Assembly: GCF_029633865.1 (NCBI RefSeq) | Contig: NC_079215.1 | Span: forward strand, 53,839,698-53,903,697 | Source: Lampris incognitus | Taxonomy: Eukaryota > Chordata > Actinopteri > Lampriformes > Lampridae | DNA: 64,000 nt | Reading direction: 5' to 3' | Part shown: positions 9,301 to 62,231 of the stretch, piece by piece | Layout of the letters: each line of letters starts with the position of its first letter | Numbering within the stretch: the stretch's first letter is position 1 | The notes under the pieces: model-generated | The model's input: the letters and a program-made list of their open reading frames with translations, nothing else | Database searches by the model: none | What the model was told of the DNA's origin: nothing | Made by a program: the position numbers and the translations under genes

Positions 9301-12300
9301 TATACGAGGCAGTGTCCAAACACTCTGCTGGCTCTAAACTGGTCACTGGTGGCATCCCCCCTGGTGCCGTTTCCCCCACACTGGCTGGGAGCCCCCATCC
9401 AGCGGTGTATGATGGTCGGGTGCGCTCTTCTACTGCACCCATTCCACAGCTACCTTCTGTTCTGATTGTGGGTGACTCATCAGGGACGTCAGGTCGAACA
9501 GAGCTGCAACACGCTGCTTTCCAGGTGCCAAGGTAAATGACATTCTGGTAGAACTTCCTAGTCTGCTATCCCAACATACCTCTGTTGAGAACGTTGTCGT
9601 TCACGTTGGCACAAATTATATTCCACGGCAGCAGTCAGAGCTTTTAAAATCGGATTTCATGCATCTTTTTAACCTTCTAAAACTTAGTAAGAAGGAAGTT
9701 TTTATCTCTGGCCCACGTCCCGGCACTGGTCGTTTTATCAGACTTTTGCAGCTTCACACCTGGCTGCAGTCGCAATGCTCTCGTTTATAATTTGGTTTTA
9801 TCGACAATTTTAATCTGTTCTGGGAGTGCTCTTCTATTTTCAAACGTGATGGACTCCATCCAAATCGAGCAGGCTCACGAATGCTGACTGCAGACGTGTC
9901 TTATTCCATTGTCTCCAACTCTCGTGTTTGTGCTATCGACAATAACGTTTGGTGCCCGCACACAGGAGCCCACAGTTCCGTCACTAATTGGCGTCCCCAG
10001 GAGCAGAGTGGTTCCAATTTCGGTTTCGTTGTAAACCATACTTACTCAGGTCCTTTGGTGGGTTCGATTCATCATACCAATGACCGTCACTCTGCCATAC
10101 TAATTCCTGTAATAATAAACCATAGACACAGACCCCGTAATCTCCCTGTAACATACAGGGAACTAAACAATTTGTTGCCAGTTCGGAGTTCAGTTATCAG
10201 TCCCCCACAAAGCCATGCATCTCAGACAATAAACATGGCTTTATTAAACGTCAGGTCGCTAACTAATAAGTCATTTTTAGTTAATGATCTTATAAGTACC
10301 TATAACCTGGATTTCACCCTACTGACCGAGAACTGGCTGTATAGAAATGGCGCAGTCGCGCTTATTTAGACTGCACCTCCTGGCTTCAAATTCATCCATA
10401 CCACCAGATCTGATAAGAGAGGCGGTGGAATAGCTGCTGTTTTCTCTGATTCCTATAGCTGCAAGGAAATCCCCCTCGGGAAATTCTCGTCTTTTGAATA
10501 TTGTAGCGAATTAAGGGAGCAGCCCGGGAGACCGTCGCCACAGCCGGGACGCGAACCCGCGTCTCCCACACCGCAAGCGACAACGTTAACCAGTCGACTA
10601 AAGGCCCCGACCCGTTAGTCAAGGACCAACGTGTCTACTTATCCGTGCATGTTACAATACCTTGCTCTTACGATACATTGTACTGCTACGATTTTAATAA
10701 TTACTGTCTATCGGCCACCATAATCTAAACATGGCTTTCTTGATGAACTTTCGGAGCTACTGTCTATGGTTTCCACTGATTATGATCGTTTCTTCATCCT
10801 AGGTGATTTTAATGTTGATGTTGACAATCAAACAGACATCGATGCTAGAAACCTAATCGGCTTACTGGAGGCATTTGCTCTCACTCAGCATTTTCCGGAC
10901 CCACCCACAATAAGGGGCTCACTCTTGACTTAGCCATATCAAAAGGACTTAATATTACGGTACCCTGTGTCATGGATGTTGCTATCTCTGATCACATTTG
11001 TATATTTTTTGATGTCTCAGCTCTTCCTGTAAAACAGAAGAGCACTCAAATTATCCAAAAACGCTTCATTGACAATAATACAATTGAAACCTTTCAGAAA
11101 ACCGTAAATGAGTTGTCGCCGTTCATGTCATCTCAAACTGAGGATCTTGTGAACGACTTCAACTCAAAAATATGAAATATATCTTTGACAACATTGCACC
11201 TGTTAAAACTAAAAACAGAAAAACAAAAAGCCCCCTGGAGAAATGGAGTGGTTATTAGGCAGCTTAAGAGAGACTGTCTCCAAGCAGAACGACAGTGGAG
11301 AAAGATTAAACTTCAGGTTCACCATGAAATTTACAAGGATAGACTGAACAAGTACAGCAAAAAGATTTAACAGGCCAGACAGCCTTTTTTCTCTACAATC
11401 ATTAATGAAAATATTAACAATAGTAAAGTGCTTTTCTCTGCTATTGATAGACTTGTTAATCCACCATCTCCAAACCCATCAGAGATGCTGTCCACTGAAA
11501 AATGTGAGCAATTCGCTACATTCTTCAATAATTATTGCCATTAGACAGAACATTAGTGCCTCAAGATCCAGTAATGAACCTACCCTCCAAGTCTAGACAA
11601 TATTGTTAGGCAGCTCAGGTCGTCCACCTGCTGCTTGGATCCTCTCCCTACCAAATTTTAAAAAAATGTTTTTAATTGCTTAGCACATGACATTTTAGAA
11701 ATTATTAACTACTCTCTTCAGGCAGGTATATTTCCTGCAGCACTTAAGACAGCTGTCGTTAAACCACTTCTGAAGAAGAGTAATCTTGATGCGACAGTTA
11801 TTGCCAACTACAGGCCCGTCTCCAACTTACCATTCCTCAGCAAAATCCTTGAAAAAACAGTTTATTCTCAAGTTAATAACCATTTAATATCTAACAACCT
11901 TCTAGGCATTTGTCAATCAGGTTTTCGAGCTCACCATAGCACAGAAACAGCACTTATCAAAGCTGTGAACAATCTGCATATGAACACAGATTCTAATAAA
12001 TTGTCTGTTCTTGTGCTCCTGGATCTCAGTGCTGCTTTCGACACTGTTTATAATGATATTTTGGTAGAGAGATTAGAGAAATGGGTCGGCCTTTCTGGCC
12101 CGGTTCTCAACTGGTTTAGAACATACCTTCAGGACAGGCAGTTCTTTGCGTCTATTGGAAACATTTCTTCGGCCAAAGGTGTGGGCTACCCCAAGGTTCG
12201 ATTCTTGGACCACTACTATTCAGTCTCTATATGCTCCCACTTGCACATGTTATACAGAAACACAAAATAAATTACCATAATTATGCAGATGATTCACAAC

Positions 12301-13178: not shown

Positions 13179-16100
13179 ATATATTTTGCTATTTTTATAT
13201 ATTCTGCTCTGTTGTTACTTTTAATTAATCAGTGTTTATGGCACTTTATATATTTTACTAACTCAGTTTTAAACTTGTTTGTACTTTTATAAAATTTGCC
13301 TGTACTTTTATTTATTTATTTTTTGTGAGGGGGGGGATTTTATTGATTTCATTGTTTTATTGTGTGAAGCACTTTGTGTTACATGTGTTTGTATGAAAAG
13401 TGCTATCCAAATAAAATCTGATTGATTGATTGATTGATAGTAGTAGTAGACACATGCCATGTGCAGAGGGACAAAATTAAGAAATACTACCGTAAAATTT
13501 CTTAAATTTCAGGATTTTGGCAGTCAGTTATACTGCGTGAGACACCACGGTGTCAGATTGTTGAGACTTTTTGATGTTTAGGAAGAACCATGGTAAGTAA
13601 GTAGAAAGTTCAATCAGGTTATTTGATCATTTAGTTATAGTCTAACATATCAGGTTTTGTTATTCTGAGCTTTTTAACATACATTTTACACATTCTGAAA
13701 TACATTCCACACAAAAACGCAAACTGGGCAGTCACTGTTTATTTAATTTTTTTCTTTTGATCAAGGATGTTTACTGTATTCCTTATAGGGTTAGTCTTTT
13801 GAAAAATTACTAAACAGAGTCCCCTATAGGCGAAATAACGTCACTTTTAAGGCGGAATAGAAAATTCGAATAAGCTGTTGAATAAGAAGCCAAGTTCAGC
13901 CTCGCTGGATGCCAGAGGTGAATTATAGGTTTTTTGGGGTTTTTTTTTTTTTAATACAAGAATGTTTTCTTGTGTAGGGCCGTGCATGTCCTCAAGTGTC
14001 TGCTCAAACCTTTGTGTGTCTCTGCATGTGTAGGATGAGAGGAACCAGGTCTTGACCACCTACTTGTGGATCAGGCAAATCTGGCACGATGCCTACTTGA
14101 AGTGGGACAAGGAGGACTATGACGGCCTGGAGGTGATACGCATTCCCAGCGACCTAGTCTGGAGGCCAGACATTGTACTCTACAACAAGTCAGTAACTTG
14201 GAGAGGGGGAGGCAAAGAGAAAGAGAAAGACAGTAATGACAAAACTTGAAGTAACAAGATAAAAAAAGGAACTAAACAAACGGCACAACTTTATATTAAT
14301 TTTGCAGGCAATATTTTGTGGGTGGTTACTTTCTTTCTACCTGTATGCTTATGCATTGAAATCTTTTATACGTGGATTTTGTTGTGTGCACGTGCTCACA
14401 TACATGCTGGATTTAGCGCATATCCCCCCCTACGTTTGCCTCTTTATATCGCTATAGAGCAGATGATGAGTCGTCGGGGCCCGCTGACACAAATGTGGTG
14501 CTGCGCTACAATGGGGAGATCATCTGGGACTCTCCAGCCATCACCAAGAGCTCCTGTGTGGTGGATGTCTCCTACTTCCCCTTTGACTGGCAGCAGTGCA
14601 ACCTAACCTTTGGCTCCTGGACCTACAATGGCAACCAGGTGCACAAACCACAGATGATACAAGCGATGAGAGGGAACACAATATTGTTTGTCCCTGTTTT
14701 TGTTTTTTGACAAACACATGGATGCAGGGACTAGCAATCACACATGGACACACGTGTGCTCAGTGCGACTGGAAACAAATTGTGTGTGTGTGTGTGTGTA
14801 ATGCATAACTGACAGTGTGTTTCTGTGTGTCCCAGGTGGACATTACCATGGGGATGAACAGTGGTGACCTGTCAGACTTTGTGGAGAACGTGGAGTGGGA
14901 GTGCCATGGCATGCCGGCAGTTAAAAACGTCATCATGTACGGCTGCTGCTCCGACCCTTATCCCGACATCACCTACACCCTGCACCTTAAGCGCCGCTCC
15001 TCCTTCTACATCTTCAACCTCCTACTCCCCTGCTTCCTCATCTCGTTTCTGGCCCCGCTGGGCTTCTACCTGCCGGCCGACTCAGGGGAGAAGGTTTCTC
15101 TGGGGGTCACCGTGTTGTTGGCCCTCACGGTTTTCCAGCTCATGGTGGCTGAGAGCATGCCACCGTCTGAGAATGTGCCCTACATAGGTGAGTGGCAAAG
15201 CCTATACCATCCATCCATCCATCCATCCATTACCCAAACCGCTTATCCTGCCCTCAGGGTCGCGGAGATGCTGGAGCCTATCCCAGCAGTCACTGGGCAG
15301 CAGGCGGGGAGACACCCTGGACAGGCCACCAGGCCATCACAGGGCCAAAAGCCTATACCATAAAAGAAATTTATATATTTTCAAGCGAATATTCAGGAAT
15401 TTCTTTAGTTATTTTACACCATTCACTGCTTAAAGCTGCCAAGAGACTTTTTCACGGATTATTTATCAGTCTCAGTTTGATTTTGATGCCTCGATATGAT
15501 CAGCGTAAGCACACAAGATCATCTGCTAGGAGATTAGGGACTGCTATATAGTGATTTCAAATGCTTGTCTCTGGGTCAGATTCCCGTATTTATGATGCAC
15601 AGGTGGGATAAATAGCCACAATTAAAGATACATTACCCCATATATTGCAAATACCTATTTTTCCAAAACACTGCTATGTCTCTTCTTCTTCTCTTCAAGA
15701 CAAACACAACAGCTACTGGAGGCTGAATGTAGAGCTTGTGACTAGAAATGTATAATACAAAACAGTCATTCTACCGCTTTTGTCCATGGGGGCAGAAAAC
15801 CCAGATAGCAAAATTGCTGTGGCCCGGACCCGTCCCACACTCGACACTTCATCCGGCCCACATACCGCATGGAATGATGCCACATATTTGTCAAAGGTGG
15901 CCCATTTTTGTTTAGTGATAGTTGGGCCATATTCACCATTTACCACACGGGCCACTTCAGTGTCACATCAGGGTCACATGGGCCACTTCAGGGTCACATG
16001 TTGCCGAGAGCACAGCGTCTTTGCCAGAAAGGCCCACATTTGATTTGGCATATTTGGGCCATATTTGCTATTATACATGTGGGCCAATTCAGGCTCACAT

Positions 16101-22182: not shown

Positions 22183-23623
22183 CCCGGAACCATAGATCGG
22201 ACAGGTCACCAAACACAGGTTAAAGGTCACACAGCTGACTCACACAAAAACAAAAGAAGAGCCAGTTAAGTGGAAGGACAGAAAGTGGAAAATGAGAAGA
22301 GTGCCCATCAGTGGCGGCTGGTGGTAAACATTTTTTTTGGGGGGGGGGCAATTTACCTTGGCGCAGCCCACCTGACAGCTGCTTTAATGTCCACGCAGTC
22401 ACAGAGTTATTAACAACGACAATGTAGCCTATAGATTTTATCAGGGTTCGTAGACGGTGGATGATTGACAGTCCAGACGAGGCGTCGTGGTGGGTGTGAA
22501 CATGATTGACAGCCACGAGAATTGTCCAATCACATTAGATCAAAAAACATTAAAACAATACAAATTCGCTGCCAATAACAGTGGGATTGTCTGGGACGCA
22601 CAGAACTGCGCCCCCTGGAGAATCTGAAGAAACCAATCAGACAGCAGCCTCAGGTCACCTGCTTGCCACAAGTTTGAGGGCTTACATGAAGTATCCTTTG
22701 GCCGGCGCCCCTCACCCAGGAAGTGTTTTTTTTACCTTTATTTAACCAGGAGGGAATGTGGAACAGAAAGCAACACATAGTCAAGACAACAAAAGGAGTA
22801 AGGGCCAGCACTTCTCAGTGCAATTAAGTCACAGATGTAGGAAGGCAGTAGACCGAGGATTGCCTTATATATAAAAGTATACCACTGACTGAGCCTTCGG
22901 GTGGCCAGAGCAGGCCATCCCACCTGAGCATACAATTCACAGTGATGTGTCAATGATTTGCAATTAGTAATAAATCTCAAAGAAGAATGGTAGGCAGTGT
23001 CTAACGCGTGGAGACATTGAGCAGAAGCATTCATATACAAAAGATCTCCATAATCCAACACAGGTAAAAAGGTGGCAGCAACAAGTCGCCTATTTACATT
23101 TAAAGAAAAACACAACTTATTTCGAAAATAAAAACCCAGTTTCAGCCTCAGCTTTTTCCAGATGTGGCTTGAAAGTGAGGGAGTCATCAATCAGGACACC
23201 CGGGTATTTGTACACATTGACCACCTCTATTTCATTTCCCTCTAAAGTGGTTACTGAAGGGATAATTTGTGATATCTTCCTAGAATTGGAAATCGGCATA
23301 AGCTTAGTCTTATCAGCGTTTAGAACAAGTTTCAGTTGAAATAATGAGTGCTGGACAGCCACAAAGGCTTTCTGCAGGGATTCAATGGCCTGGACAACAG
23401 TAGATCCACAGCAATAAATAACTGTATCATCAGCATAAAAATGCAAATTAGCATCTGACACATGTAGACCAAAATCATTGATGTAAATAATAAATAAAAG
23501 GGGACCTAATACAGAGCCCTGCGGTACCCCCTTGTGGACAGTAACAAAATCAGAACACAGACCCTCATGTTTACCCAAAGGAATTGAATCAAGTGCAACT
23601 GGACTTGGTTATATATTCGTGAA

Positions 23624-23657
23624 GACGTTTCGCCTCTCATCCAAGAGGCTTCATCAG
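23624..23657 (-). ncRNA. Hammerhead-ribozyme-like core, left arm
   Basis: On the minus strand: CTGATGA, one extra A, a 6-bp stem II (GCCTCT/AGAGGC) with a 6-nt loop, GAAA, then ACGT and C. This is the mirror copy of the right-arm motif. ACGT is self-complementary, which would suit a dimeric hammerhead. Self-cleavage is inferred, not shown. Confidence 0.5.
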
Positions 23658-23875
23658 TTCGTGCCTTTCTGACTAGACCAAGCTAGTCTGACTGGCTGGT
23701 GATGAAACTCAGATATTTAGCCTCTTTGGAGTCGTTATCAGAGCTATTGATGTGAATGGCTCTTTTGTGTTCCGATGTTTAGCAACGACAGTCTGATAAC
23801 GACTCCAAAGAGGCTAAATATCTGAGTTTCATCATAGCCAGTCAGACTAGCTTGGTCTAGTCAGAAAGGCACGAA

Positions 23876-23909
23876 CTGATGAAGCCTCTTGGATGAGAGG
23901 CGAAACGTC
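23876..23909 (+). ncRNA. Hammerhead-ribozyme-like core, right arm
   Basis: CTGATGA is at 23876-23882, stem II pairs 23884-23889 with 23896-23901, GAAA is at 23902-23905, and CGTC follows. GAA before CTGATGA and TTC after the predicted GTC cleavage site could pair as the start of stem I. Penelope-like elements are known to carry minimal hammerhead ribozymes. One extra A beside stem II departs from the textbook core. Confidence 0.5.
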
Positions 23910-25042
23910 TTCACGGATATATAACCAAGTCCAGTTGCACTTGATTCAATTCCTTTTAATAACTATGACCTGGATGAATGAGAACATTCACAGACACCCT
24001 CATGTTTAGTGCACTGAGTTCTGTTATTGAGGTAATTTGAGAACCAAGCGACTGCTTGCTCTGAAAATCCTGAAAGACGGAGTCTACATTTTGAAATATT
24101 GTGGTCAACAGTGTCAAACGCTTTTGACAAATCAATAAAAAGTGACGCACAATGTTGTTTCTTATCAAGTGCAACAGAAGTGTCATTAACCAACTTCACT
24201 GCAGCTGTGATGATACTATGTGATGATACTATGTTTTTTTCTAAAGCCTGATTGATATTTCGATAGGATGGCATTGGAGTGTAAAAACTTCTTTACTTGC
24301 TCCCCCACAAGAGCTTCAAGAATTTTGGCCAGCACAGATAGATTCGATATTGGTCTATAATTAGTTAAAATCGCTGGATCATCCCCTTTTAATAGAGGGA
24401 GAATAAAAGCTGATTTCCATACCAGGGGAATTTCATTATTTTCCACTGCAAGATTAAAAAGGTATGCAAGAGGCTCTGCTACAAAATCAGCTGCCAGTTT
24501 CAAGAAGTAAGGTTCAATTTGACCAGGTCCAGAAGATTTTCTAGGATCTAAAGCCTTAAGGGCATTGTAAACTTCCTGAACAGAGGAAGGTACAAAGTTG
24601 AAAAGCTGACCACCATACATTGAGAGGTCTGCGCAAGGTTTCACAGAGACAGATACAGAGTCAAATAAAGAGCCAGAAGATATAAAATGCTCATTAAAAC
24701 AAGTAAGTACCTCAATTTTATCATAGACAGGAACAGAATCCTTTAAAAAATAGGTAGGTAGAGCTTGAGAGCTTTTGCTCACAGAAAGTGAATTAATAAC
24801 TTTCCAAAATTTTCGAGAATTATTTATATGTACTCAGGCAGAAATCAACCCAATACCGTTTGGAACCAATATTTAATGGCTGCTGACAGGCGCTCACAGA
24901 CTGAAAAACACTTTTATTTCATAATCATTTGCATTATACAGCTAAATTATATTTAACATGTTTAAGCAGATTTTCATCTCTTGACATTTGAAGGGGGCGG
25001 CACCCCAGCGCCCTGTACCGGCCAGCCACCATTGGTGCCCAT

Positions 25043-27791: not shown

Positions 27792-29809
27792 GCTACTGCT
27801 ACTACTACTGCTACTGCTACTACTACTGCTACTGCTACTGCTACTACTACTGCTACTACTACTACTACTACTGCTACTGCTACTACTACTGCTACTAGGG
27901 GTCGCCACAGCGGATCATCCATTTCCATCTCTTCCTGTCCTCTGCATCTTCCTCTGTCACACCAACCACCTGCATGTCCTCCCTCACCACATCCATAAAC
28001 CTCCTCTTTGGCCTTCCTCTTCTCCTCTTCCCTGGCAGCTCCATATTCAGCATCCTTCTCCCAATATACCCAGCATCTCTCCTCCACACATGTCCAAGCC
28101 ATCTCAACAGTAAAATTTGACATGAGACTTAACATAACTTGAGTTGACTATAAGTTGTATTGACATTCACATCTATCCTTCTTTGCCTGGCAGGCAGAAG
28201 GGTGCCCGCCTTTTCTACTGAAGTCAGACTGGTTCTGCTGGGAAAGACCGGTAGTGGAAAGAGTGCTACCGCCAACTCCATCCTAGGTCGAAAGACATTT
28301 GGCTCAGCAGTCTGCAGCTCATCGGCGACCCAGTGCTGCCGCGGGGCCTGTGGAGACTTCCGAGGACGGCACATCATCCTCTTGGATACCCCGGGGCTGC
28401 TAGACACACATCAGGATCCTCAGGAGGTGCAGAAGGAGCTCAAAAGGAGTGTTACTCTTTTGTTCCCTGGTCCCCATGCCTTTCTCATAATTATCCAGAT
28501 TGGGAGGTTCACAAAGGAGGAAAAAGAAGCTCTGGGGCAAATCCAGAAGACACTGGGGCCACAAGCTCTGGATTTCTCTGTGGTAGTATTCACCCATGGA
28601 GATTGTCTGGACCAGAGGACCTCCATGAGGGATTGCCTGATAGGGAAGTCTGAGGGTCTGGCTGAGTTGGTGGCCAGATGTGGGGGCAGGTACTGCGTCT
28701 TCAACAACCACAGCTCCAAAAGTAAAGACCAAGTGTCTGAGCTGCTGGCCCTGGTGGACAGCATGGTGGATGCCAATAAAGGTAGCTGTTACACCAGCAT
28801 GATGCTGCAGGAAGCAGAGAAGGAGATGGCACAAAAGCTGGAGGAGGGGAGGAGGCGACTAAAGGAGCAACGGGAGCTAACTAAAAGGGAACAAGAGAAG
28901 GTGCTGAGACAGCGGTATGAGAGAGAGCTGGAGAAGATGCAGCAAAGAAATGAGAGACAGATGGAGGAGCTTACGAGATACCAGCAGATTCAAAGAGAGA
29001 AGGAGGAGGAATTTGCCAGAGAGAAGCGAAGAGATTTGGAGGAGAATGACAACAGGGAGAAGGAGCGGAAGATCCAAGAGATGGTTAAGATAATGGACAT
29101 AAGGAGGGAGGAAGAGGAGAGGAGGGAGGCACTCCAAGAAAAGCTTGACAAAGTCACCAAAACGCTGGAGGAGCAGACAGAGAGGGAGGAGAAGATGAGG
29201 AGAGAGATGGAAGAGAGAACGCAGAAAGAACTAGTGAAACATGAAAAGATGGAACGAGAGTGGCAACTTCAGCATTTAGAGAAGGAGCAGGCCATCAAGC
29301 AGAGGGAGGAGATGAGGGGAGATGCTTTGCAAAAAGAAGTGGACAGACTCACCCGGAGCATCGAAGAGCAAAGGGCAAAGGAGGAGGAGAGGGCAAAGCA
29401 AAGGGAACTCCTGATCAGGAGCAAGAGGGAGGAGTGCCAAAGGGAAAGGGAGAGACAGACGGAAAACCAGAGAGCAGAGAAAAAGAGATTCGAGGACCTC
29501 CAGCGGCAACTGTGGCGCATCACAATGAAGACGGAGCAGCAGAAAGCCAACGACGAGAAGCTCAAGAGAGTGATGGATGAGGGCTTGCACCAGGAGAAGG
29601 AGAGATGTGGTGCGGAAATTGGCAGGCTGGAGAGTCAGTATGACAAGGGAGGTCCAGAGCTTTGTTGCGAGGTTGTCCCAAGGAGCCCTGCAGGAGGGCC
29701 CAGTATATCAGCATACATCAGTGCTGTGAGCGGATACGTCCACGAGATGGGACTGGTGGGGTTAAATGTCGCTTTAGAGAGCATTGGAGCACCCTGCTCC
29801 ATCCAGTAA
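27056..29809 (+). CDS. GIMAP/AIG1-type GTPase with long coiled-coil tail (2 exons)
   Basis: A member of the immune-associated nucleotide-binding GTPases, a family strongly expanded in fish. The model joins 27056-27107 (AAG|GTAAGT donor) to 28194-29809 (TGGCAG acceptor). The phase-1 junction makes a Gly codon and gives 555 residues. Seen: P-loop GKTGSGKS (residues 34-41), Switch II/G3 LLDTPGL, the GIMAP conserved box with GPHAFLIIIQIGRFTKEE, a G4-like FTHGD, and a G5-like FNN. From about residue 230 nearly everything is Glu/Lys/Arg/Gln-rich heptad sequence (about 270 residues), ending with a short non-coil tail (VHEMGLVGLNVALESIG). Such a coil may drive oligomerisation. Start choice: ATG 27056 is the first ATG after an in-frame stop at 27017. 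The alternative is an in-frame ATG at 28160 without exon 1. Confidence 0.85.
27527..27898 (+). repeat. (CTA/CTG)n trinucleotide array, about 370 bp
   Basis: An uninterrupted mix of CTA and CTG units with occasional TTA. It abuts the 3' end of the minus-strand RTE-like fragment at 27895-28107, whose family ends in short (GTA)n tails. It lies in the intron of the GIMAP gene. Poly-Leu, poly-Thr/Ala and poly-Ser frames across it are repeat artefacts. Confidence 0.95.
27895..28107 (-). mobile_element. RTE-like LINE 3' end fragment
   Basis: It encodes [39 protein letters not shown] and MIRCGDP, the basic C-terminus of fish RTE-type reverse transcriptases. Open over 70 codons, truncated at the 5' end. 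It is in the GIMAP intron, antisense. Confidence 0.8.
28194..29809 (+). CDS. GIMAP exon 2: G domain and coiled coil
   Basis: This single large exon carries the whole AIG1 domain and coiled-coil tail with no internal stop, as is usual for GIMAP genes. It ends with TAA at 29807-29809 after APCSIQ. Confidence 0.9.
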
Positions 29810-37107: not shown

Positions 37108-39405
37108 TTAAAGGGTCATGCAGAAGGAGAGGCCGAGAAAGAAAAGGGTCAAGAAGCAAGCTGTTTGAGTGAAAGGGAGAAAACGGATCCAGAGACAGAA
37201 AGGGAACAAACCGATCCAGAGACAGAAAGGGAACAAACCGATCCAGAGACAGAAAGAGAGCAAATAGACCCAGCGAGAGAGAGGGAGCAAACTGACGTAG
37301 AGAGGGAAAGTGATCAAGCAGCTGCTGCAACTCCTTCCAGAAGTTACAGGGATGATTTAGGTGACGAAGACACTGGGCCCAGACATGTAAAGCTGAATAG
37401 CTTCCCACAAGATAGTTTTGGTACACAGTATAGGGGATTTCAGTACTGCTGGTTTGATAAATACAAATGGCTAGAATACTCTGTCAACCAAAATGCAGCT
37501 GTCTGCTTTCCATGTTGACTATTTGGCAAAAACATAAAACACGATGCTTTGGTCAGTAATGGCTGTAAAAACTGGAAGAAAGCCTTGTTTATCTTTGAAA
37601 AGCATGAGATGGCACAAACCCATAAAGACAGTGTTGTGGCATGGCAAAGCTACTAGGCAACTGGCAGTCAGGGAAAAATTGCTCAGATTATAGCATCTGC
37701 ACATGTAAGCGAGATAGCAGAGAGAAGGGGATATATCAGGTGAATTGTTGCGGTCCCTTTTCGTGGCAGTAATGAAGCTAATGAAAGCACAGACAGGGGC
37801 AACTTTGTTGCATGTATGGAACTTTTGTTGAAGGAATTTGACCCTTTCCTCCGTCGAATACCACTTATCTCTCTCCAACATTTCAGAATGAGATGATTGA
37901 GTGTTGTGCTCAAGAAATCACTAATGTCATAATCTCTGAGATGACAAAGTCCAGAATGTATGCCATTATGGCAGATGAGGACAGTCAGAGCAGTTGGCTG
38001 TGTGTTTTAGGTACATTACAGAGGGGGCGGTTAAGCAGCATTTTCTAGCACTAACAGAAATGAAGTCATTTGATGCCTAGTCCATAGCAACTGAGTTGCA
38101 GGAGCAGCTCCAAATCAATGGGCTAGCGGCGCTAAAATATGTCACACAAACATATGTTGGTGCAGCCGTTATGAGTGGGTCCACTGGGGATGTGCAAGTA
38201 CATTTCAGAATGCTGCATCCAGAGGCAATTTATGTGCATTGTTATGCTCACGAGCTGAACTTGGTGTTGTGCCATACTCGCAGGGCTGTTTTAGAGGCTC
38301 CAGAGTTTTTCAGTTTGTTGAATTGTGTCTATTCCTTTTTCAGCACCTCCCTAGTTAACCACCACAAGTTCAAAGAAGCTCCGGCCAAACTTGGATTGAC
38401 ATCAGCTGAACGTGTATAACTTTCTACCACTCACTGGGCACGCAAGCTGCGATCCCTTAACGTAGTTCTTGACACTTTACCTGCCATTTTTGAATGTCTG
38501 TCTGCCATTGGATCCCCCATAGCTGTTGGTCTGAGAAAGAAGCTTTACAAGTTTTCAACAGTGTATTTACTACCGATGTTTCAGTCCCTACTTGTAACTG
38601 AGGGACTTCACAAGTTCCTACAGAAAGAGACTTTAGACCTGACAGAAGCTGTCATCTGCAAACAAGCTGAGTGTGACACACTGAGAGGCAAACGCACAGA
38701 TGCCTTTGCCACAGAGCTTTATGAGAGAGCCAAGGCCCTGTGCAACACTCACAATATCCCAGAACCAGATTCCAAAAAAAAAAAGGCATAAACAGAGGAA
38801 AATTGGTGATTTTGTGTTGGAGACAACCTTGGGTTCAGGCACAGATTGGTTCAGCTCAGGCCTCTTGAAAACAGAGTTGCTGTTCCCCTGCTTGGATAGG
38901 ATGGTTAGTGAGCTTGAACGATTTTCTAGTGTAGATGCAAGCCTACTAAAAGTCATCCAGGCATGCAGCCCTAATTCAGAACACTTCTTGAGTGAATCAT
39001 ATTTAACTGAGCTTGCCAATCACTACAACATTGAGCTCAAAACAGAAGAGGTGCTGGTGGCCAGAAGCTTTCTTGCATGCAAAACAGAGGCTGGATGTCC
39101 ACCCCAAGACATACTAGTTGTGCACAACTTCCTAGATCCAGATATGTACCCCTCTCTAAAGGCAATCATTCAAGTTGCCCTAACAATACCCGTGAACAGC
39201 TGCTCTTGTGAAAGGTCTTTTAGTCCACTGTGCCGGCTGCACTCCTGGCTGCATAAAACAATGGGGGCAGAAGAGGCTTCACAGTCTTGCAGCCATGTCA
39301 ACTGAGTGCAAAACACTAGGGCTGCTGAGTCACAACAGAATCGTGGACCGATTTGCCACCTTCAAAAACAGAAGGTATTCTTTGATGCTCCCACCCACAA
39401 AATAG
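37108..39405 (+). pseudogene. Decayed ZMYM/TTF-type hAT transposase
   Basis: In order: an acidic N-terminus with a repeated DPETEREQT (27-bp units, about 37186-37270); a TTF-type zinc-finger region (QYRGFQYCWFDKYKWLEYS, AAVCFPC); a degraded DUF4371-like middle (MADEDSQSS, then VHCYAHELNLVLCHT); and a hAT C-terminal dimerisation region (HNFLDPDMYPSLKAI, ALTIPVNSCSCERSFS). Multiple in-frame stops and shifts (for example near 37516, 37655 and 38419) break it. The element's right end at 40507-40521 reads CTAGTGACGCCCCTG, a hAT-like terminus; the left terminus was not found. Confidence 0.8.
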
Positions 39406-51744: not shown

Positions 51745-52643
51745 ATCCTAGATCATACACAGTAAGACTTTTAACCACACGATCTGTCATCTGTAATCCC
51801 TATAAAACGGATACTGAGAATGTAAACCTGCCTTGCCCCAAATAGTCTCCATAGCGGAACCACGTGTTCCCCTCCGGTTTAAAGATAAGAGGACTTTAAC
51901 GGCACTTCCGGCCGTACTGCAAATCTACATACATTTGTACCCACGTTGAGCATCCACAGCGAGCGTATAGACCCGCTATATGGGATATTACCTTCCTATG
52001 GCGTGCAGCTGGATGGGACGTACCAACGCTAGACCGATGTAGGTCAGTTTCAGCGCATACGCCGCCCCCTCCCCCTCCCCCGCCCCGGGGGAAGTTCTTT
52101 TTCCTCCCCCCCATGTTACGTTTCCCTGTGTTTCCCCGGGTTTGCCCTGAAGGGCATTTTGATGCGCTCGTTTGATGAAGAAGCTGGAGCCGAAACGAGG
52201 TGTCAATCACCGAGTAAGGCCGCGGGCGACTGTTGCTTTTCTCCCACGGCACACTTGTCTCGTGTCTGGCAAAAAAAATAGAGTAGAAAAATTTAAAAAA
52301 AAAACTTCTAACGTGGATTTAGTAGTTTACCAGCTGGTGGTACACGTGGTCTCCGATAAATCTGCAGCTGTGTGCTCATAAGAGCATCACAGATTAGTGC
52401 CCCTCCAGGAGGACACGCGCCTACATGCCAGCCTCATATGCGGGACATGGGGGTATAAGCCTACTTTTATTTTTCGTTTTATACAGAAAAGGGGACGGTT
52501 TAACCTCTCCTCCTCCTCCTCCTCCTCCTCCTCCTCCTGCCTCTTTTTTTCTTCTTCTTCTTCTTTTGGGTGTTCACGCAGTCCGACGCTCAACCCTGTT
52601 ATTTCCCTTGCTGTGCCGACATGGGCGCACCGAGGACCGGGCG
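51745..52643 (+). promoter_or_regulatory. Immediate upstream region of the dopamine receptor
   Basis: This should contain the promoter and 5' UTR. A (TCC)n run (about 52506-52540) and a TTC-rich stretch precede the start codon. An ATG at 52621 in another frame lies upstream of the coding ATG and could act as a short upstream ORF. No TATA box assigned. Confidence 0.4.
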
Positions 52644-54113
52644 ATGAATACCACCGCGGACTGGGTGCGGAGTGAGAGCCGGGACAAACTCCTGGGGCGC
52701 CGGGCTCTCGTCGGCAGCGTCCTCGCCCTGCTCATTTCCTGGACCTTCCTCGGCAACTTCACGGTGTGCGCGGCGATTTTCCGCTACCGGCATCTGCGGG
52801 CGAAGGTGACCAACATCTTCATCGCCTCCCTCGCCCTGTCGGACCTGCTGGTCGCGGTGCTGGTGATGCCGTGGAAAGCCGCGGCCGAGGTGGCCGGTTT
52901 CTGGCCGTTCGGCGCCTTTTGCAACACCTGGGTGGCGTGCGACATCATGTGCTCCACCGCCTCCATCCTGAACCTGTGCGTCATCAGCGTGGACCGCTAC
53001 TGGGCCGTGTCCAGCCCGTTCCGTTACGAGAGGAAAATGGACAGGAGGGTGGCCTCCGTCATGCTAGGCGTGACGTGGACCGTGTCCGTGGTCATCTCCT
53101 TCGTCCCCGTGCAGCTCAAGTGGCACCGGGCGGACGTCGGCGACGCTCCAGCCGCCGCCTCCTCCGCCGCCGCCCGCAACACTACGCCGAGCGTCAGGGA
53201 CGGACACTGCGACCCGAGTCTGAGCCGCACTTACGCCATCTCCTCCTCCCTCATCAGCTTCTACATCCCCGTGGCTATCATGGTGGCCACGTACACGCGC
53301 ATATATCGGATAGCCCAGGTGCAGATAAGACGCATATCCACCTTGGAACGCGCGGCCGAGCATGCGCAGAGCTGCCACTCCCATTACGCGCCCGACTCTC
53401 GCCCGCGCCTCAGCGCGAGTTCCTGCCAGCGTCCGTGTCTGCGCCCCTGTTCTCACCCGCACCGCCGCCCTTCTCAGCCCGTCCACCGCGCTCTCAGGGT
53501 GTCCATCAGACGGGAGACGAAAGTGGTGAAAACCCTCAGCATAATCATAGGCGTCTTCATCTGCTGCTGGTCCCCTTTCTTTGTGCTGAACTGCGCCATA
53601 CCCTTCTGCCCGGGGCCCGAGTCGCCCAACGCCCAGCGTGGCCCCTACTGCGTCAGCAAGAGGACCTTCGACGTGTTCGTGTGGTTCGGCTGGAGCAACT
53701 CGTCTCTCAACCCCATCATCTACGCGTTCAACGCGGACTTCCGGGAGGCCTTCCTCCGCCTCCTCGGCTGCCGCTGCACGAGATGCCGGGGCGCCGGGGG
53801 CGCAGCGGTGGAGACCGTGGTGGCGAGCCACGACGTCGGGTCCCTCAAGCAGGAAAGCCCCCTCCACATGGAGACGGGGGCGTGTTGGAGCGTCAACACC
53901 AGGGGCAGCGAGGACAGCGGGAAGACCACGGTCACTCTGGTTTACCCACGAGGGGCGGCGGCTTTGGACCAGGAGACAGACGCGGAGGAGAGCAAAGCTG
54001 GAGACGTGGACAGACAGACAGACACAGATACCCGAATGAAGAGCGCGCGTCTATCTGTTATTTCGGGGAGCTCCGACATGATGGCGTTCATGACGGGATC
54101 GGAGAGAAAATAG
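52644..54113 (+). CDS. D1-class dopamine receptor (DRD5/D1C-type), intronless
   Basis: A Gs-coupled class A GPCR for dopamine, 489 residues in one exon as expected for the D1 class. Seen: an N-terminal sequon (N2); TM1 to TM7; LALSDLL with D67 (2.50); amine-binding D100 (3.32, VACDIMC); DRY 117-119; disulfide pair C93-C189; the serine cluster in TM5 ([11 protein letters not shown]200-S202); W309 in TM6; and NPIIY 356-360. [18 protein letters not shown] in loop 3 resembles DRD5 and D1C more than DRD1. VETV after the palmitoylation-type cysteines C376/C378 also fits DRD5. Exact paralogue not settled. Odd points: CWSPFF instead of the usual CWLPFF, a Cys/Pro/Arg/His-rich insertion in loop 3 (about 244-282), and an Ala-rich extracellular loop 2. 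ATG 52644 was chosen because upstream in-frame codons are microsatellite-derived. Confidence 0.92.
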
Positions 54114-55649: not shown

Positions 55650-56386
55650 TCCTGGAAACTCTTAATAGGACACACCCGCCTACTTAGGGGTGTGATGGTT
55701 AATTATGCAGTGGTTGAATGTGGCCTCGGGGCCGCGGACACTGAAACCGCTGATGGGTTTGTTTCCTGTGTTCGAACCACGTCTGACTGACGCTGTATTG
55801 CTGCTTCATTTTAAAAACTGAACACTTTGTGTATTTTTGTTGTCTGGGTAACTTTAGTGCATTGGACAAGCACACAAGCATCAGATCTGCAGAGCACAAG
55901 TCCACCAGTCCACTGACATGCAACCTTCAAGGCACGTGGTAGCACATCCTAAATTTACTCGCTGTATAAAGATGTTTATTTCTTAGAGAATGTCAGAGCT
56001 TTGTCGTTGTAATAAATATTATCAGTGGCATGTGCAACATGATGAGTATCGGGCCAAAGGCTGCGTCTGATTTCCTCCATGCGGCCTTGTGAGCTCATGT
56101 GATCCACAAGACCTGCTCATTTGCTCTTCTGGGGATTTTTGGAGATCTGGTGTTTTTCCTTAAAGTCTGCATCAGTCCTCTGCAGAGGGGGAGTCTTTCT
56201 TGCTGGCGAGAGCTTGTGTCCCTATACATGTGTGGACCGCTAGACCCGTCTGCATGTGGTGTGTACATTTTTCTGTTTGTTCGAGAGCAGGGAGAGGCAG
56301 ACCGAAAACTGGACTCTGAATGTTAAGTAGGTACGCACGTTTGGTGTTTTTGTCTCTGCAAGTCTGTATGTGAACTTGTTGGTGTA
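55650..56386. other. Intergenic stretch, unassigned
   Basis: No gene or clear repeat recognised. Confidence 0.45.
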
Positions 56387-59156
56387 CAGTGGCGGACTCA
56401 GGGTGTTTGAGGGGGGCAGGGGCGAAAGAAATAAAAAGGGCACCAGCCTGTATGTGGTGGAGCACCAGCGTGCAGAAAGTCGTGATGCATTTATGCACTC
56501 TAGAGGGCACTTCTTTACGTCTTGTCCACTGGAAGGGCACCCTAGAGGGCACTTTATCATATTTTGTCGACTGGAAGGGCACTCTAGAGGGCACTTTATT
56601 ACATCTTGTCCACTGGAAAGGTACCCTAGAGGGCACTTTATCATATTTTGTCTACTGGAAGGGCACCATAGAGGGCACTTCTTTACGTCTTGTCCACTGG
56701 AAAGGCACCCTAGAGGGCACTTCTTTACGTCTTGTCCACTGGAAAGGCACCCTAGAGGGCACTTCATCATGTTTTATCGACTGGAAAGGCACCCTAGAAG
56801 GCACTTTATTACATCTTGTCCACTGGAAAGGCACCCTAGAGGGCACTTTATCATATTTTGTCTACTGGAAGGGCACCATAGAGGGCACTTTATTACATCT
56901 TGTCCACTGGAAAGGCACCATAGAGGGCACTTCTTCATATCTTGTCCACTCGAAGGGCACCATAGAGGGCACTTCATCATGTTTTGTCCACTGGAAGGGC
57001 ACCATAGAGGGCACTTCATTATGTCTTGTCCACTGGAAGGGCACCCTAGAGGGCACTTTATCATGTTTTGTCCACTGGAAGGTCATCATAGAGGGCACTT
57101 TATATTAGGTCTTGTTCACTGGAAGGGCACCCTAGAGGACACTTTATCATGTTTTGTCCACTGGAAGGGCATCATAGAGGGCACTTTGTCATGTTTTGTC
57201 CACTGGAAGGGCACCCTAGAGGGCACTTTATCATGTTTTGTCCACTGGAAGGGCATCATAGAGGGCACTTTATATTAGGTCTTGTTCACTGGAAGGGCAC
57301 CCTAGAGGACACTTTATTATGTCTTGTCCACTGGAAAGGTACCCTAGAGGGCACTTGATCATGTTTTGTCTACTGGAAGGACACAGTAGAGGGCACTTCA
57401 TCGCATCTTGTCCACTGGAAGGTCACCATAGAGGGCACTTTATCATGTTTTGTCCACTGGAAGGACACCCTAGAGGGCACTTCATCATGTTTTATCGACT
57501 GGAAGGGCACCCTAGAGGACCCTTTATTACATCTTGTCCACTGGAAAGGTACCCTAGAGGGCACTTTATCATATTTTGTCTACTGGAAGGGCACTCTAGA
57601 GGGCACTTTATTACATCTTGTCCACTGGAAAGGCACCACAGAGGGCACTTCTTCATATCTTGTCCACTCGAAGGGCACCATAGAGGGCATTTTATTATGT
57701 CTTGTCCACTGGAAAGGCACTCTAGAGGGTACTTTATCATGTTTTGTCCACTGGAAAGGCACCCTAGAGAGCACTTCATCATGTTTTGTCCACTGGAAGG
57801 GCACCATAGAGGGCACTTCATTATGTCTTGTCCACTGGAAGGGCACCCTAGAGGACACTTTATTATGTCTTGTCCACTGGAAGGGCACCCTAGAGGGCAC
57901 TTTATCATGTTTTGTCCACTGGAAGGGCATCATAGAGGGCACTTTATATTAGGTCTTGTTCACTGGAAGGGCACCCTAGAGGACACTTTATCATGTTTTG
58001 TCCACTGGAAAGGCATCATAGAGGGCACTTTATCATGTTTTGACCACTGGAAGGGCACCCTAGAGGGCACTTTATCATGTTTTGTCCACTGGAAGGTCAT
58101 CATAGAGGGCACTTTATATTAGGTCTTGTTCACTGGAAGGGCACCCTAGAGGACACTTTATTATGTCTTGTCCACTGGAAAGGTACCCTAGAGGGCACTT
58201 TATCATGTTTTGTCTACTGGAAGGACACAGTAGAGGGCACTTCATCACATTTTGTCCACTGGAAGGACACCCTAGAGGGCACTTCATCATGTTTTATCGA
58301 CTGGAAGGGCACCCTAGAGGACCCTTTATTACATCTTGTCCACTGGAAAGGTACCCTAGAGGGCACTTTATCATATTTTGTCTACTGGATGGGCACTCTA
58401 GAGGGCACTTTATTACATCTTGTCCACTGGAAAGGCACCATAGAGGGCACTTCTTCATATCTTGTCCACTCGAAGGGCACCATAGAGGGCATTTTATTAT
58501 GTCTTGTCCACTGGAAAGGCACTCTAGAGGGTACTTTATCATGTTTTGTCCACTGGAAAGGCACCCTAGAGAGCACTTCATCATGTTTTGTCCACTGGAA
58601 GGGCACCATAGAGGGCACTTCATTATGTCTTGTCCACTGGAAGGGCACCCTAGAGGACACTTTATTATGTCTTGTTCACTGGAAGGGCACCCTAGAGGAC
58701 ACTTTATCATGTTTTGTCCACTGGAAGGGCACAGTAGAGGGCACTTTATATTAGGTCTTGTTCACTGGAAGGGCACCCTAGAGGACAGTTTATTATGTCT
58801 TGTCCACTGGAAAGGTACCCTAGAGGGCACTTTATCATGTTTTGTCTACTGGAAGGACACAGTAGAGGGCACTTCATCACATCTTGTCCACTGGAAGGTC
58901 ACCATAGAGGGCACTTTATCATGTTTTGTCCACTGGAAGGGCACTCTAGACGGCACTTTATTATGGTTTGTCCACTGGAAAGGCACACTAGAGGGCACTT
59001 CATCACTATATCACATTGTCTTGCACATCTGGCCACTCTAGAGGGCACTTCACCATTTTTCATCTACCATTGGGGCATCCAAGAGTACACTTTTGTGGCG
59101 TTTTTTGGAACATAGGGGGCAAGGGGCAACCCCCCCCTCCCCCGAGTCCTCCAGTG
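56387..59156. mobile_element. hAT-like non-autonomous element consisting mainly of a minisatellite
   Basis: The left end CAGTGGCGGACTCAGGGTG and right end (complement) CACTGGAGGACTCGGGGG are inverted repeats. Flanks TTGGTGTA (56379-56386) and TTTGTGTG (59157-59164) match at 6 of 8 positions, compatible with a diverged 8-bp hAT duplication. Almost all the interior is the 42-bp minisatellite. No transposase. Confidence 0.65.
56505..59048. repeat. 42-bp minisatellite, about 60 copies
   Basis: The unit contains TTGTCCACTGGAAGGGCACC and CTAGAGGGCACTTTATCATG. Most units are 42 bp; units with TATATTAGG are 44 bp. Blocks of 20 units (844 bp) recur, for example 57319 onward against 58163 onward, so there is higher-order structure. 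Because 42 is a multiple of three, long frames stay open on both strands; the 44-bp units break them. Confidence 0.95.
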
Positions 59157-61306: not shown

Positions 61307-61758
61307 ATCTATCTTTTAACTTTGTACCCTTCCTTCAGTGTAAACCAGACACCGTTATCGGACCCTGATCTGTTGGGGTCTCAACAGGACGCACAAATTA
61401 AACACTATGGCAGCCGTCGAAAGAGAGTTACTCTCATTATGAGGCTTTTCAACTCGACTACCTTCCAAAGCGGATTGGACCAGAGCGATATCACAAACGG
61501 CTGCCCAGAATTATGGATTTAGCTCAAATAAATACCTGGTCTCTGGTTTTGATGAGGGGATACTTTGTCTTCTGTGGTAAGCCATCTTGTCTGTAGCTGC
61601 TAGATGTCCAGGCTCGCCCCGGCCGGGAGGGATGATCATCCACCATGAATCAGTTCATTTCTTCACCTACACATGACTTGATCGAGCTGTGTGTCCGACA
61701 CAAGACTGCACCAAACGCATTGCAGCTGAATGACTTCAGGCTGTGCTGCAAACCTACA
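61307..61758. other. Intergenic stretch, unassigned
   Basis: No gene recognised. Confidence 0.45.
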
Positions 61759-62231
61759 GGCCCCCACAGGCCCCTATAGGTCCCCATAGGCCCCTTACAG
61801 ACCCCTATAGGTCCCCATAGGCCCTTACAGACCCCTATAGGTCCCCATAGGCCCCTACAGACCCCTATAGGTCCCCATAGGCCCTTACAGGCCCCTATAG
61901 GTCCCCATAGGCCCTTACAGACCCCTATAGGTCCCCATAGGCCCTTACAGACCCCTATAGGTCCCCATAGGCCCCTACAGACCCCTATAGGTCCCCATAG
62001 GCCCCTACAGACCCCTATAGGTCCCCATAGGCCCTTACAGACCCCTATAGGTCCCCATAGGCCCTTACAGACCCCTATAGGTCCCCATAGGCCCCTACAG
62101 ACCCCTATAGGTCCCCATAGGCCCGTACAGGCCCCTATAGGTCCCCATAGGCCCCTACAGACCCCTATAGGTCCCCATAGGCCCCTTACAGACCCCTATA
62201 GGTCCCCATAGGCCCCTTACAGGCCCCTATA
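61759..62231. repeat. 30-bp minisatellite with 10-bp subunits, about 15 copies
   Basis: The unit is ACCCCTATAGG, TCCCCATAGG, CCCTTACAG. Each 30-bp unit is three diverged 10-bp subrepeats. Some units are 31 bp (CCCCTTACAG). C-rich on the plus strand. Confidence 0.95.

What the first reader, a model, noticed from the sequence alone, without database searches (positions are those of the whole stretch)
23574..23995. Hammerhead-ribozyme-like cores in an inverted Penelope-like pair
Both arms of a foldback insertion carry CTGATGA, a 6-bp stem II (GCCTCT/AGAGGC), GAAA and a GTC site. The segment between GAAA and C is the self-complementary ACGT, which suits a dimeric hammerhead. The two copies face each other, so a transcript of either strand contains one functional-sense core and one antisense core. 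An extra A next to stem II departs from the canonical core.
Basis: partly seen in the sequence, partly recalled or inferred. Interest (0 to 1): 0.75.

Follow-up and report, generated by a model that had tools for sequence, protein, structure and literature searches.

The report
Fish retroelement pair with hammerhead motifs
A small fish retroelement fragment carries two facing copies of a minimal self-cleaving-RNA motif that is already known from this class of retroelement; at this spot the two copies are predicted to lock each other into a duplex and stay silent.

Summary
The foldback is one insertion (23574-23995) with a 13-bp target-site duplication in a LINE. It consists of two head-to-head inverted pseudo-LTRs (about 166 nt, differing at two places) plus a tail, the published anatomy of Penelope-like elements (PLEs). 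Each arm holds CTGATGA-A-GCCTCT/AGAGGC-GAA-ACGT-C, a hammerhead core without its own stem III, overlapping the element's start codon. Minimal, dimer-type hammerheads in PLE pseudo-LTRs are published, so this is a new member of a known kind. No Rfam hammerhead matches. The fish's genome has 2040 matches to the core pattern against 105 for a control, up to 389 of them in a satellite. The extra nucleotide is a family feature, not decay. In a transcript of either strand the antisense arm comes first and the sense core is predicted to pair with it (mean P 0.9996), so this locus is probably inert; direct tandem copies elsewhere suit dimeric cleavage better. Cleavage was not tested. In passing: a tandem satellite of about 1.15 kb near contig ends carries a better-formed hammerhead-like fold.

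The parts
23561..23573 (.). Target-site duplication, left copy (ACCCTCATGTTTA)
23996..24008 (.). Target-site duplication, right copy
23574..23791 (-). Inverted pseudo-LTR (left arm); its 49 nt at 23743-23791 form the unpaired spacer and belong to this pseudo-LTR, being contiguous with it in direct copies such as both pseudo-LTRs of L023
23792..23958 (+). Direct pseudo-LTR (right arm), 5' shortened by about 49 nt relative to the left one
23959..23995 (+). Tail, on the right arm only, open in the frame of the element's ORF
23876..23909 (+). Hammerhead-like core, right arm: CTGATGA 23876-23882, extra A 23883, stem II 23884-23889/23896-23901, GAA 23902-23904, ACGT 23905-23908, predicted cut after C 23909
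23624..23657 (-). Hammerhead-like core, left arm, same 34 nt
23893..23995 (+). Start of the PLE ORF: ATG in the stem II loop, its A 17 nt before the predicted cut; [34 protein letters not shown]
   Evidence: near-identical N terminus in L023
24009..24833 (-). Host LINE, 5' part of the reverse transcriptase region (RVT_1 E 6.1e-5, below Pfam's cut-off)
22741..23573 (-). Host LINE, 3' part (RVT_1 E 1.2e-14)

Best explanation
A Penelope-like retroelement inserted two head-to-head pseudo-LTRs, without its RT/endonuclease ORF, into a LINE (shown: unit insertion with TSD, inverted arms, tail on one arm, and the same pseudo-LTR flanking an RT-like ORF elsewhere in the genome). Each pseudo-LTR carries the family's minimal type-I hammerhead motif, with one extra nucleotide before stem II, at the start of the ORF (shown: motif and position). 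In tandem copies two such motifs on one RNA could pair their ACGU palindromes and cleave as a dimer (inferred from published PLE hammerheads). At this locus the arms face each other, so transcripts of either strand form a long hairpin and the ribozyme stays off (predicted by folding, not tested). The inverted layout most likely arose by self-priming or template switching during reverse transcription (inferred; self-priming is proposed for PLEs in PMC3846280).
For: 13-bp TSD; with the flanks joined, one minus-strand frame is open through all 164 codons examined, while the filled site has stops. Of 20 fetched genome copies, 11 have a head-to-head inverted pair within 600 bp by blast matches and none a tail-to-tail one; 6 of those 11 have flanking exact repeats of 9-16 bp, against a maximum of 8 in 400 random comparisons. 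PMC3846280 (passages, section 6, discussion) describes inverted pLTRs, a tail on one of them, ORF start inside the pLTR, TSDs and mostly head-to-head arrangement. L023 has two direct pseudo-LTRs 2775 bp apart with a weak RVT_1 match between them (E 2.9e-4, below Pfam's cut-off) and, by my eye, a GIY-YIG-like stretch. Core pattern: 2040 matches, control 105. Extra A in 31 of 31 complete cores in the 20 loci (35 hits, 4 incomplete). PMC11167929 (passages) places a PLE hammerhead at the ORF start with protein-assisted cleavage lost in G8C and C3G mutants. PMC6155905 and PMC7761336 (passages) report minimal hammerheads lacking helix III in PLEs, which may act as dimers.
Against: No Rfam hammerhead match (also L018, L023 and L038). 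Stem I has only 3 proximal pairs; the possible distal helix is within chance (458 of 5000 shuffles). Standard folding does not give the hammerhead: monomer MFE -24.5 against -13.1 kcal/mol for the hammerhead fold, dimer -54.4 against -24.7. 5 of 11 inverted pairs show only 5-6 bp flanking repeats. GIY-YIG was not found by Pfam in 5 pieces of L023; PLE clade undetermined. In PMC11167929 the PLE hammerhead did not cleave without protein, its mutants still inserted, and RNA-seq showed no ends at the cut site. No other species was available.
Confidence: 0.85

Rival explanations
1. The core is not a working ribozyme: it is conserved as the start of the PLE reading frame and only resembles a hammerhead.
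For: It overlaps the start codon; no Rfam hit; no stem III of its own and 3 bp of stem I; MFE folds disfavour the hammerhead; near-identical copies in one genome tell little about selection.
Against: Other repeat families keep a paired but different stem II between the same core blocks (GTCACT/AGTGAT; GAGC/GCTC). The Anolis PLE hammerhead cleaves with protein and loses this in C3 and G8 mutants (PMC11167929, passages).
Confidence: 0.25
2. The foldback is a terminal-inverted-repeat or foldback DNA transposon that happens to carry the motif.
For: Long near-perfect inverted arms with a small loop.
Against: Tail on one arm only; flanking repeats of different lengths; inversion points differ between copies; the same sequence flanks an RT-like ORF as direct repeats.
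Confidence: 0.03
3. The insert itself has a function, as a source of dsRNA or small RNA, or as a ribozyme acting in trans when transcription starts inside the 49-nt spacer and yields only one arm.
For: The predicted hairpin is very stable (-331.5 and -322.4 kcal/mol for the two strands). PMC3846280 (discussion) reports that most A. vaga Penelope copies give small RNAs of preferentially antisense polarity.
Against: No transcription data were available; it is one of many such inserts in the genome.
Confidence: 0.12

Closest known systems
Minimal type I hammerheads in PLE pseudo-LTRs (Cervera & De la Pena 2014; Lunse, Weinberg & Breaker 2017; neither text held, known here through passages of PMC6155905, PMC7761336 and PMC6466107)
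   Same: Core, missing helix III, dimer mode, place in the pseudo-LTR of a PLE
   Different: One extra nucleotide between A9 and stem II here; whether those papers list it could not be read. The copy studied is an inverted, not a tandem, pair
Poseidon PAc hammerhead, Anolis carolinensis (PMC11167929, passages and part 1 of the main text)
   Same: Hammerhead at the pLTR-ORF junction, overlapping the start of the ORF
   Different: Predicted cut 17 nt from the start codon here, 26 bp there; the window copy has no ORF beyond its start
Adineta vaga Penelope insertions with inverted pLTRs (PMC3846280, passages, section 6 and discussion)
   Same: Head-to-head pLTRs, one shorter by tens of bp, tail on one, ORF start within the pLTR, TSD
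   Different: The window copy lacks the internal ORF; that paper does not mention hammerheads (0 occurrences)
Chrysanthemum chlorotic mottle viroid plus-strand hammerhead (PMC3705267, passages; De la Pena & Flores 2001 by title only; its exact place next to A9 is recalled)
   Same: An extra A in the catalytic core
   Different: A viroid RNA, unrelated in sequence

Membership tests
Penelope-like element insertion | Pseudo-LTRs, direct or inverted, with a tail | tested here: met
Penelope-like element insertion | Target-site duplication | tested here: met
   13 bp for the window copy; 6 of 11 related inverted pairs have 9-16 bp, 5 of 11 only background length
Penelope-like element insertion | RT plus GIY-YIG endonuclease ORF in complete copies | tested here: inconclusive
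   L023: sub-threshold RVT_1 match in 1 of 5 pieces, no GIY-YIG match; GIY-YIG-like stretch by eye; one piece has no PDB relative
Penelope-like element insertion | Placement in the PLE RT phylogeny | not tested
   no reference PLE proteins were fetched
Hammerhead ribozyme | Conserved core CUGANGA, GAAA, UH | tested here: met
   with one extra nucleotide after A9
Hammerhead ribozyme | Stem II | tested here: met
   6 Watson-Crick pairs plus one U.G; different but paired stem II in other families
Hammerhead ribozyme | Stem I | tested here: inconclusive
   3 bp proximal; distal helix within chance
Hammerhead ribozyme | Stem III within one molecule | tested here: not met
   GAA-ACGT-C leaves no hairpin; ACGT can pair only between two copies, the dimer type (sequence)
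Hammerhead ribozyme | Match to an Rfam hammerhead model | tested here: not met
Hammerhead ribozyme | Self-cleavage | not testable with these tools
   needs in vitro transcription

The most novel reading that the evidence does not exclude
In this fish genome a hammerhead with one extra nucleotide before stem II is the standard dimer-type ribozyme, shared by several PLE-like families and by a tandem satellite of about 1.15 kb near chromosome ends. There the motif lies in direct tandem on the CCCTAA strand, upstream of degenerate telomere-like repeats, and could process long subtelomeric transcripts, much as hammerheads of telomere-attached Terminon PLEs sit beside reverse-complement telomere repeats (PMC6431247, passages).
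Probability: 0.35. Interest if true: 0.65.

Novelty: new member of a known kind. Interest (0 to 1): 0.36.

Why it matters
The locus is a clean example of how PLEs leave inverted pseudo-LTR pairs whose ribozyme motifs are predicted to silence each other. The wider result is more useful: an extra-nucleotide core that the Rfam models did not detect, carried by nearly all pattern matches in this genome, and the same core in a subtelomeric satellite, are concrete RNAs in which to test dimeric hammerhead cleavage.

Tried and rejected
Rfam at gathering and permissive thresholds gave no hammerhead. The best permissive hits on the insert (snR70, E 0.00079, 27.2 bits against a gathering score of 55, and weaker ones) are far below their gathering scores and follow the long hairpin; rejected as chance.

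Prokaryotic genomes: 8 contigs match CTGATGAAGCN{8,28}GAAACGTCTTC, with stem II of 0 bp in 7 and 2 bp in 1: chance. Viral contigs: 4 patterns, 0 matches. Phages and plasmids: no match. These collections are not of fish DNA and say little.

The distal stem I helix of the PLE copy is not beyond chance. The idea that the 49-nt spacer was foreign was dropped: it is the pseudo-LTR's own 5' part. A literature search for the string GAAACGTCTTC gave 6 papers, unrelated by title. A search for hammerhead with subtelomeric, satellite DNA and ribozyme gave 2 papers, seen as listing only; this is no proof that such satellites are undescribed. Cervera 2014, Lunse 2017 and two further papers asked for by DOI are not held, so whether the extra nucleotide is already described in PLEs is open.

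Full report
Observation. The segment 23574-23995 is one insertion. The 13-bp sequence ACCCTCATGTTTA lies at both ends (23561-23573, 23996-24008). With the flanks joined, one minus-strand frame is open through all 164 codons examined; with the insert in place that frame has stops. The flanks are a LINE (RVT_1 in two parts, E 1.2e-14 and 6.1e-5, the second below Pfam's cut-off). The insert is two inverted arms of about 166 nt that differ at two places, a 49-nt spacer, and a tail on the right arm only.

The motif. Both arms carry CTGATGA, an extra A, GCCTCT-TGGATG-AGAGGC (7 bp if the inner U.G pair is counted), GAA, ACGT and C. The loose pattern CTGANGA to GAAA is at chance level in the window (8 against 4.94 expected). 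CTGANGA with a stem II of 6 bp or more before GAA occurs 0.11 times per shuffled window; with a palindromic stem III as well, in 2 of 2000 shuffles. Rfam has no hammerhead match at gathering level nor among the 11 matches up to E = 10 on the insert. Stem I has 3 proximal pairs; a distal helix of 6 pairs exists, but 458 of 5000 shuffles do as well. Minimum-energy folding does not favour the hammerhead as monomer or dimer; such programs do not model the tertiary contacts of ribozymes.

What the element is. The own genome (G000, 1.48 Gb, 537 contigs) answered: 47 matches of an 86-nt pseudo-LTR piece were listed, 40 of them full-length at 100 % (the window's right arm among them), from 716 first-look candidates of which 40 were scored. 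I fetched about 8 kb around the first 20 of these 40; they are close copies in list order, not a random sample. By blast matches, 11 of 20 have a head-to-head inverted pair within 600 bp and none a tail-to-tail pair; L032 and L033 look like duplicates of one locus. 6 of the 11 have flanking exact repeats of 9-16 bp; the other 5 have 5 or 6 bp, which is background (2 of 6 single copies have 11 and 13 bp). Counting only near-exact cores, 2 of 20 loci (L019, L030) have a head-to-head pair and 5 of 20 (L023, L027, L030, L032, L033) a same-direction pair, 269 to 2802 bp apart. L023 has two complete pseudo-LTRs 2775 bp apart in direct orientation. The frame that starts in its first one begins like the window copy, [21 protein letters not shown]; the region between holds broken frames with a weak RVT_1 match and a DLYIG stretch that I read by eye as GIY-YIG. 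This agrees with the published PLE plan: inverted pLTRs, tail, ORF start inside the pLTR, TSD, mostly head-to-head (PMC3846280, section 6 and discussion). The clade was not determined.

The extra nucleotide. CTGATGAN{10,34}GAAACGTC has 2040 matches in the genome against 105 for the reversed control. Up to 389 of these belong to the satellite described below (counted with up to 2 mismatches), so the PLE family accounts for roughly 1,500 or more; this was not counted directly. With a non-A base after CTGATGA there are 71 matches against 93 in the control, so by subtraction 1969 against 12 carry the A. Of the 71 rows, 19 are main-family copies with another base at that place, and none is a main-family copy with the nucleotide deleted. 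All 31 complete cores in the 20 loci have the A (35 hits, 4 incomplete). A pattern for stem II starting GA or GT gave 30 matches against 2 in the control. Most are point variants of the main family, but GTCACT/AGTGAT and GAGC/GCTC forms with paired stem II occur, with the extra A; two of six fetched variants (L075, L076) pair only 3 bp. Among 38 other strings, 7 have a stem of 4 bp or more starting one base in and none one that starts directly after CTGATGA. One extra nucleotide is therefore the rule in this sequence context. The pattern fixes GAAACGTC, so canonical cores with another stem III are not covered; a search for them did not complete. An extra A in a hammerhead core is known from a viroid (PMC3705267, passages). 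Whether the PLE hammerhead papers list it could not be read.

How it works. Shown: unit insertion, inverted arms, motif, position at the ORF start, extra nucleotide kept. Inferred: the motif cleaves as a dimer in direct tandem copies, as reviewed in PMC7761336 and PMC6466107 (passages), and perhaps only with the element's protein, as for PAc; in that work the ribozyme mutants still inserted in vitro and RNA-seq showed no ends at the cut site (PMC11167929, passages), so its role is open. For the window's insert, transcripts of either strand reach the antisense core first, and the predicted pairing of the sense core with the other arm has mean probability 0.9996, so the ribozyme should be off. 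Self-priming is the published proposal for such inverted pairs (PMC3846280, discussion).

Wider observation. The same pattern search met tandem arrays of units of about 1.1-1.15 kb with CTGATGA-A-GGTA-AGACA-TACC-GAAACGTC. With up to 2 mismatches there are 389 matches and 0 in the control. Only the first 100 rows were listed: they lie within about 82 kb of contig ends of C1, C3, C5 and C6, on the + strand near starts and the - strand near ends. Six units from four contigs, fetched because they match the 29-nt core exactly, also agree in the stem I strands outside it; they are near-identical overall and so give no covariation. Stem I is 3 bp, a 4-nt bulge and 8 Watson-Crick pairs (5 of 5000 shuffles as good with offsets up to 6, 18 of 5000 with offsets up to 18). 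CCCTAA occurs on the motif's strand (14 times in L038, 11 in L069, TTAGGG in neither). Rfam does not detect a hammerhead there (L038). It is in direct tandem and so a better candidate for dimeric cleavage than the window's insert. That these contig ends are chromosome ends is inferred.

Verdict. The finding is real and correctly described. It is a new member of a known kind, with an extra-nucleotide core worth checking against the literature, and probably inert at this locus.

Noticed in passing
G000 contigs C1:400-57399, C3 last 82 kb, C5:1135-35100, C6:63864 and last 32 kb; loci L037-L066 and L067-L070: Tandem satellite near contig ends, unit about 1.1-1.15 kb, with a well-formed hammerhead-like fold (3 + 8 bp stem I with a bulge, GGTA/TACC stem II, ACGT palindrome, extra A); 389 matches genome-wide, 0 in control.
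   Followed up: partly
L072, L073, L074 (C14, C3, C17): Another repeat family with CTGATGA-A-GAGC...GCTC (or GCTT)-GAAACGTC; L072 also shows antisense core-like stretches just upstream.
   Followed up: partly
L075 (C1:41634600-41634850): Inverted repeat (20-bp helix found around the core, 0 of 500 shuffles) containing a hammerhead-like core with a 3-bp stem II; possibly a foldback element.
   Followed up: no
L071 (C15:35210900-35211100): Related motif with stem II GTCACT/AGTGAT and a 4-bp proximal stem I; possibly a different PLE-like family.
   Followed up: partly
window 22741-24833 (-) and 11662-12267 (+): Two RVT_1-bearing LINE-like remnants; the first is the target of the PLE insert.
   Followed up: partly
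window 56172-59115 and 61650-62211: Long open frames of short repeating peptides in several frames, which look like minisatellite arrays.
   Followed up: no
window 14809-15363, 28154-29809, 52398-54113, 38685-39305: Likely gene pieces: neurotransmitter-gated channel, AIG1/GIMAP GTPase, rhodopsin-family receptor, hAT transposase C terminus.
   Followed up: no
window 23879-23896: A 5-codon upstream ORF (MKPLG) starts inside CTGATGA and its TGA overlaps the ATG of the PLE ORF in the stem II region.
   Followed up: no
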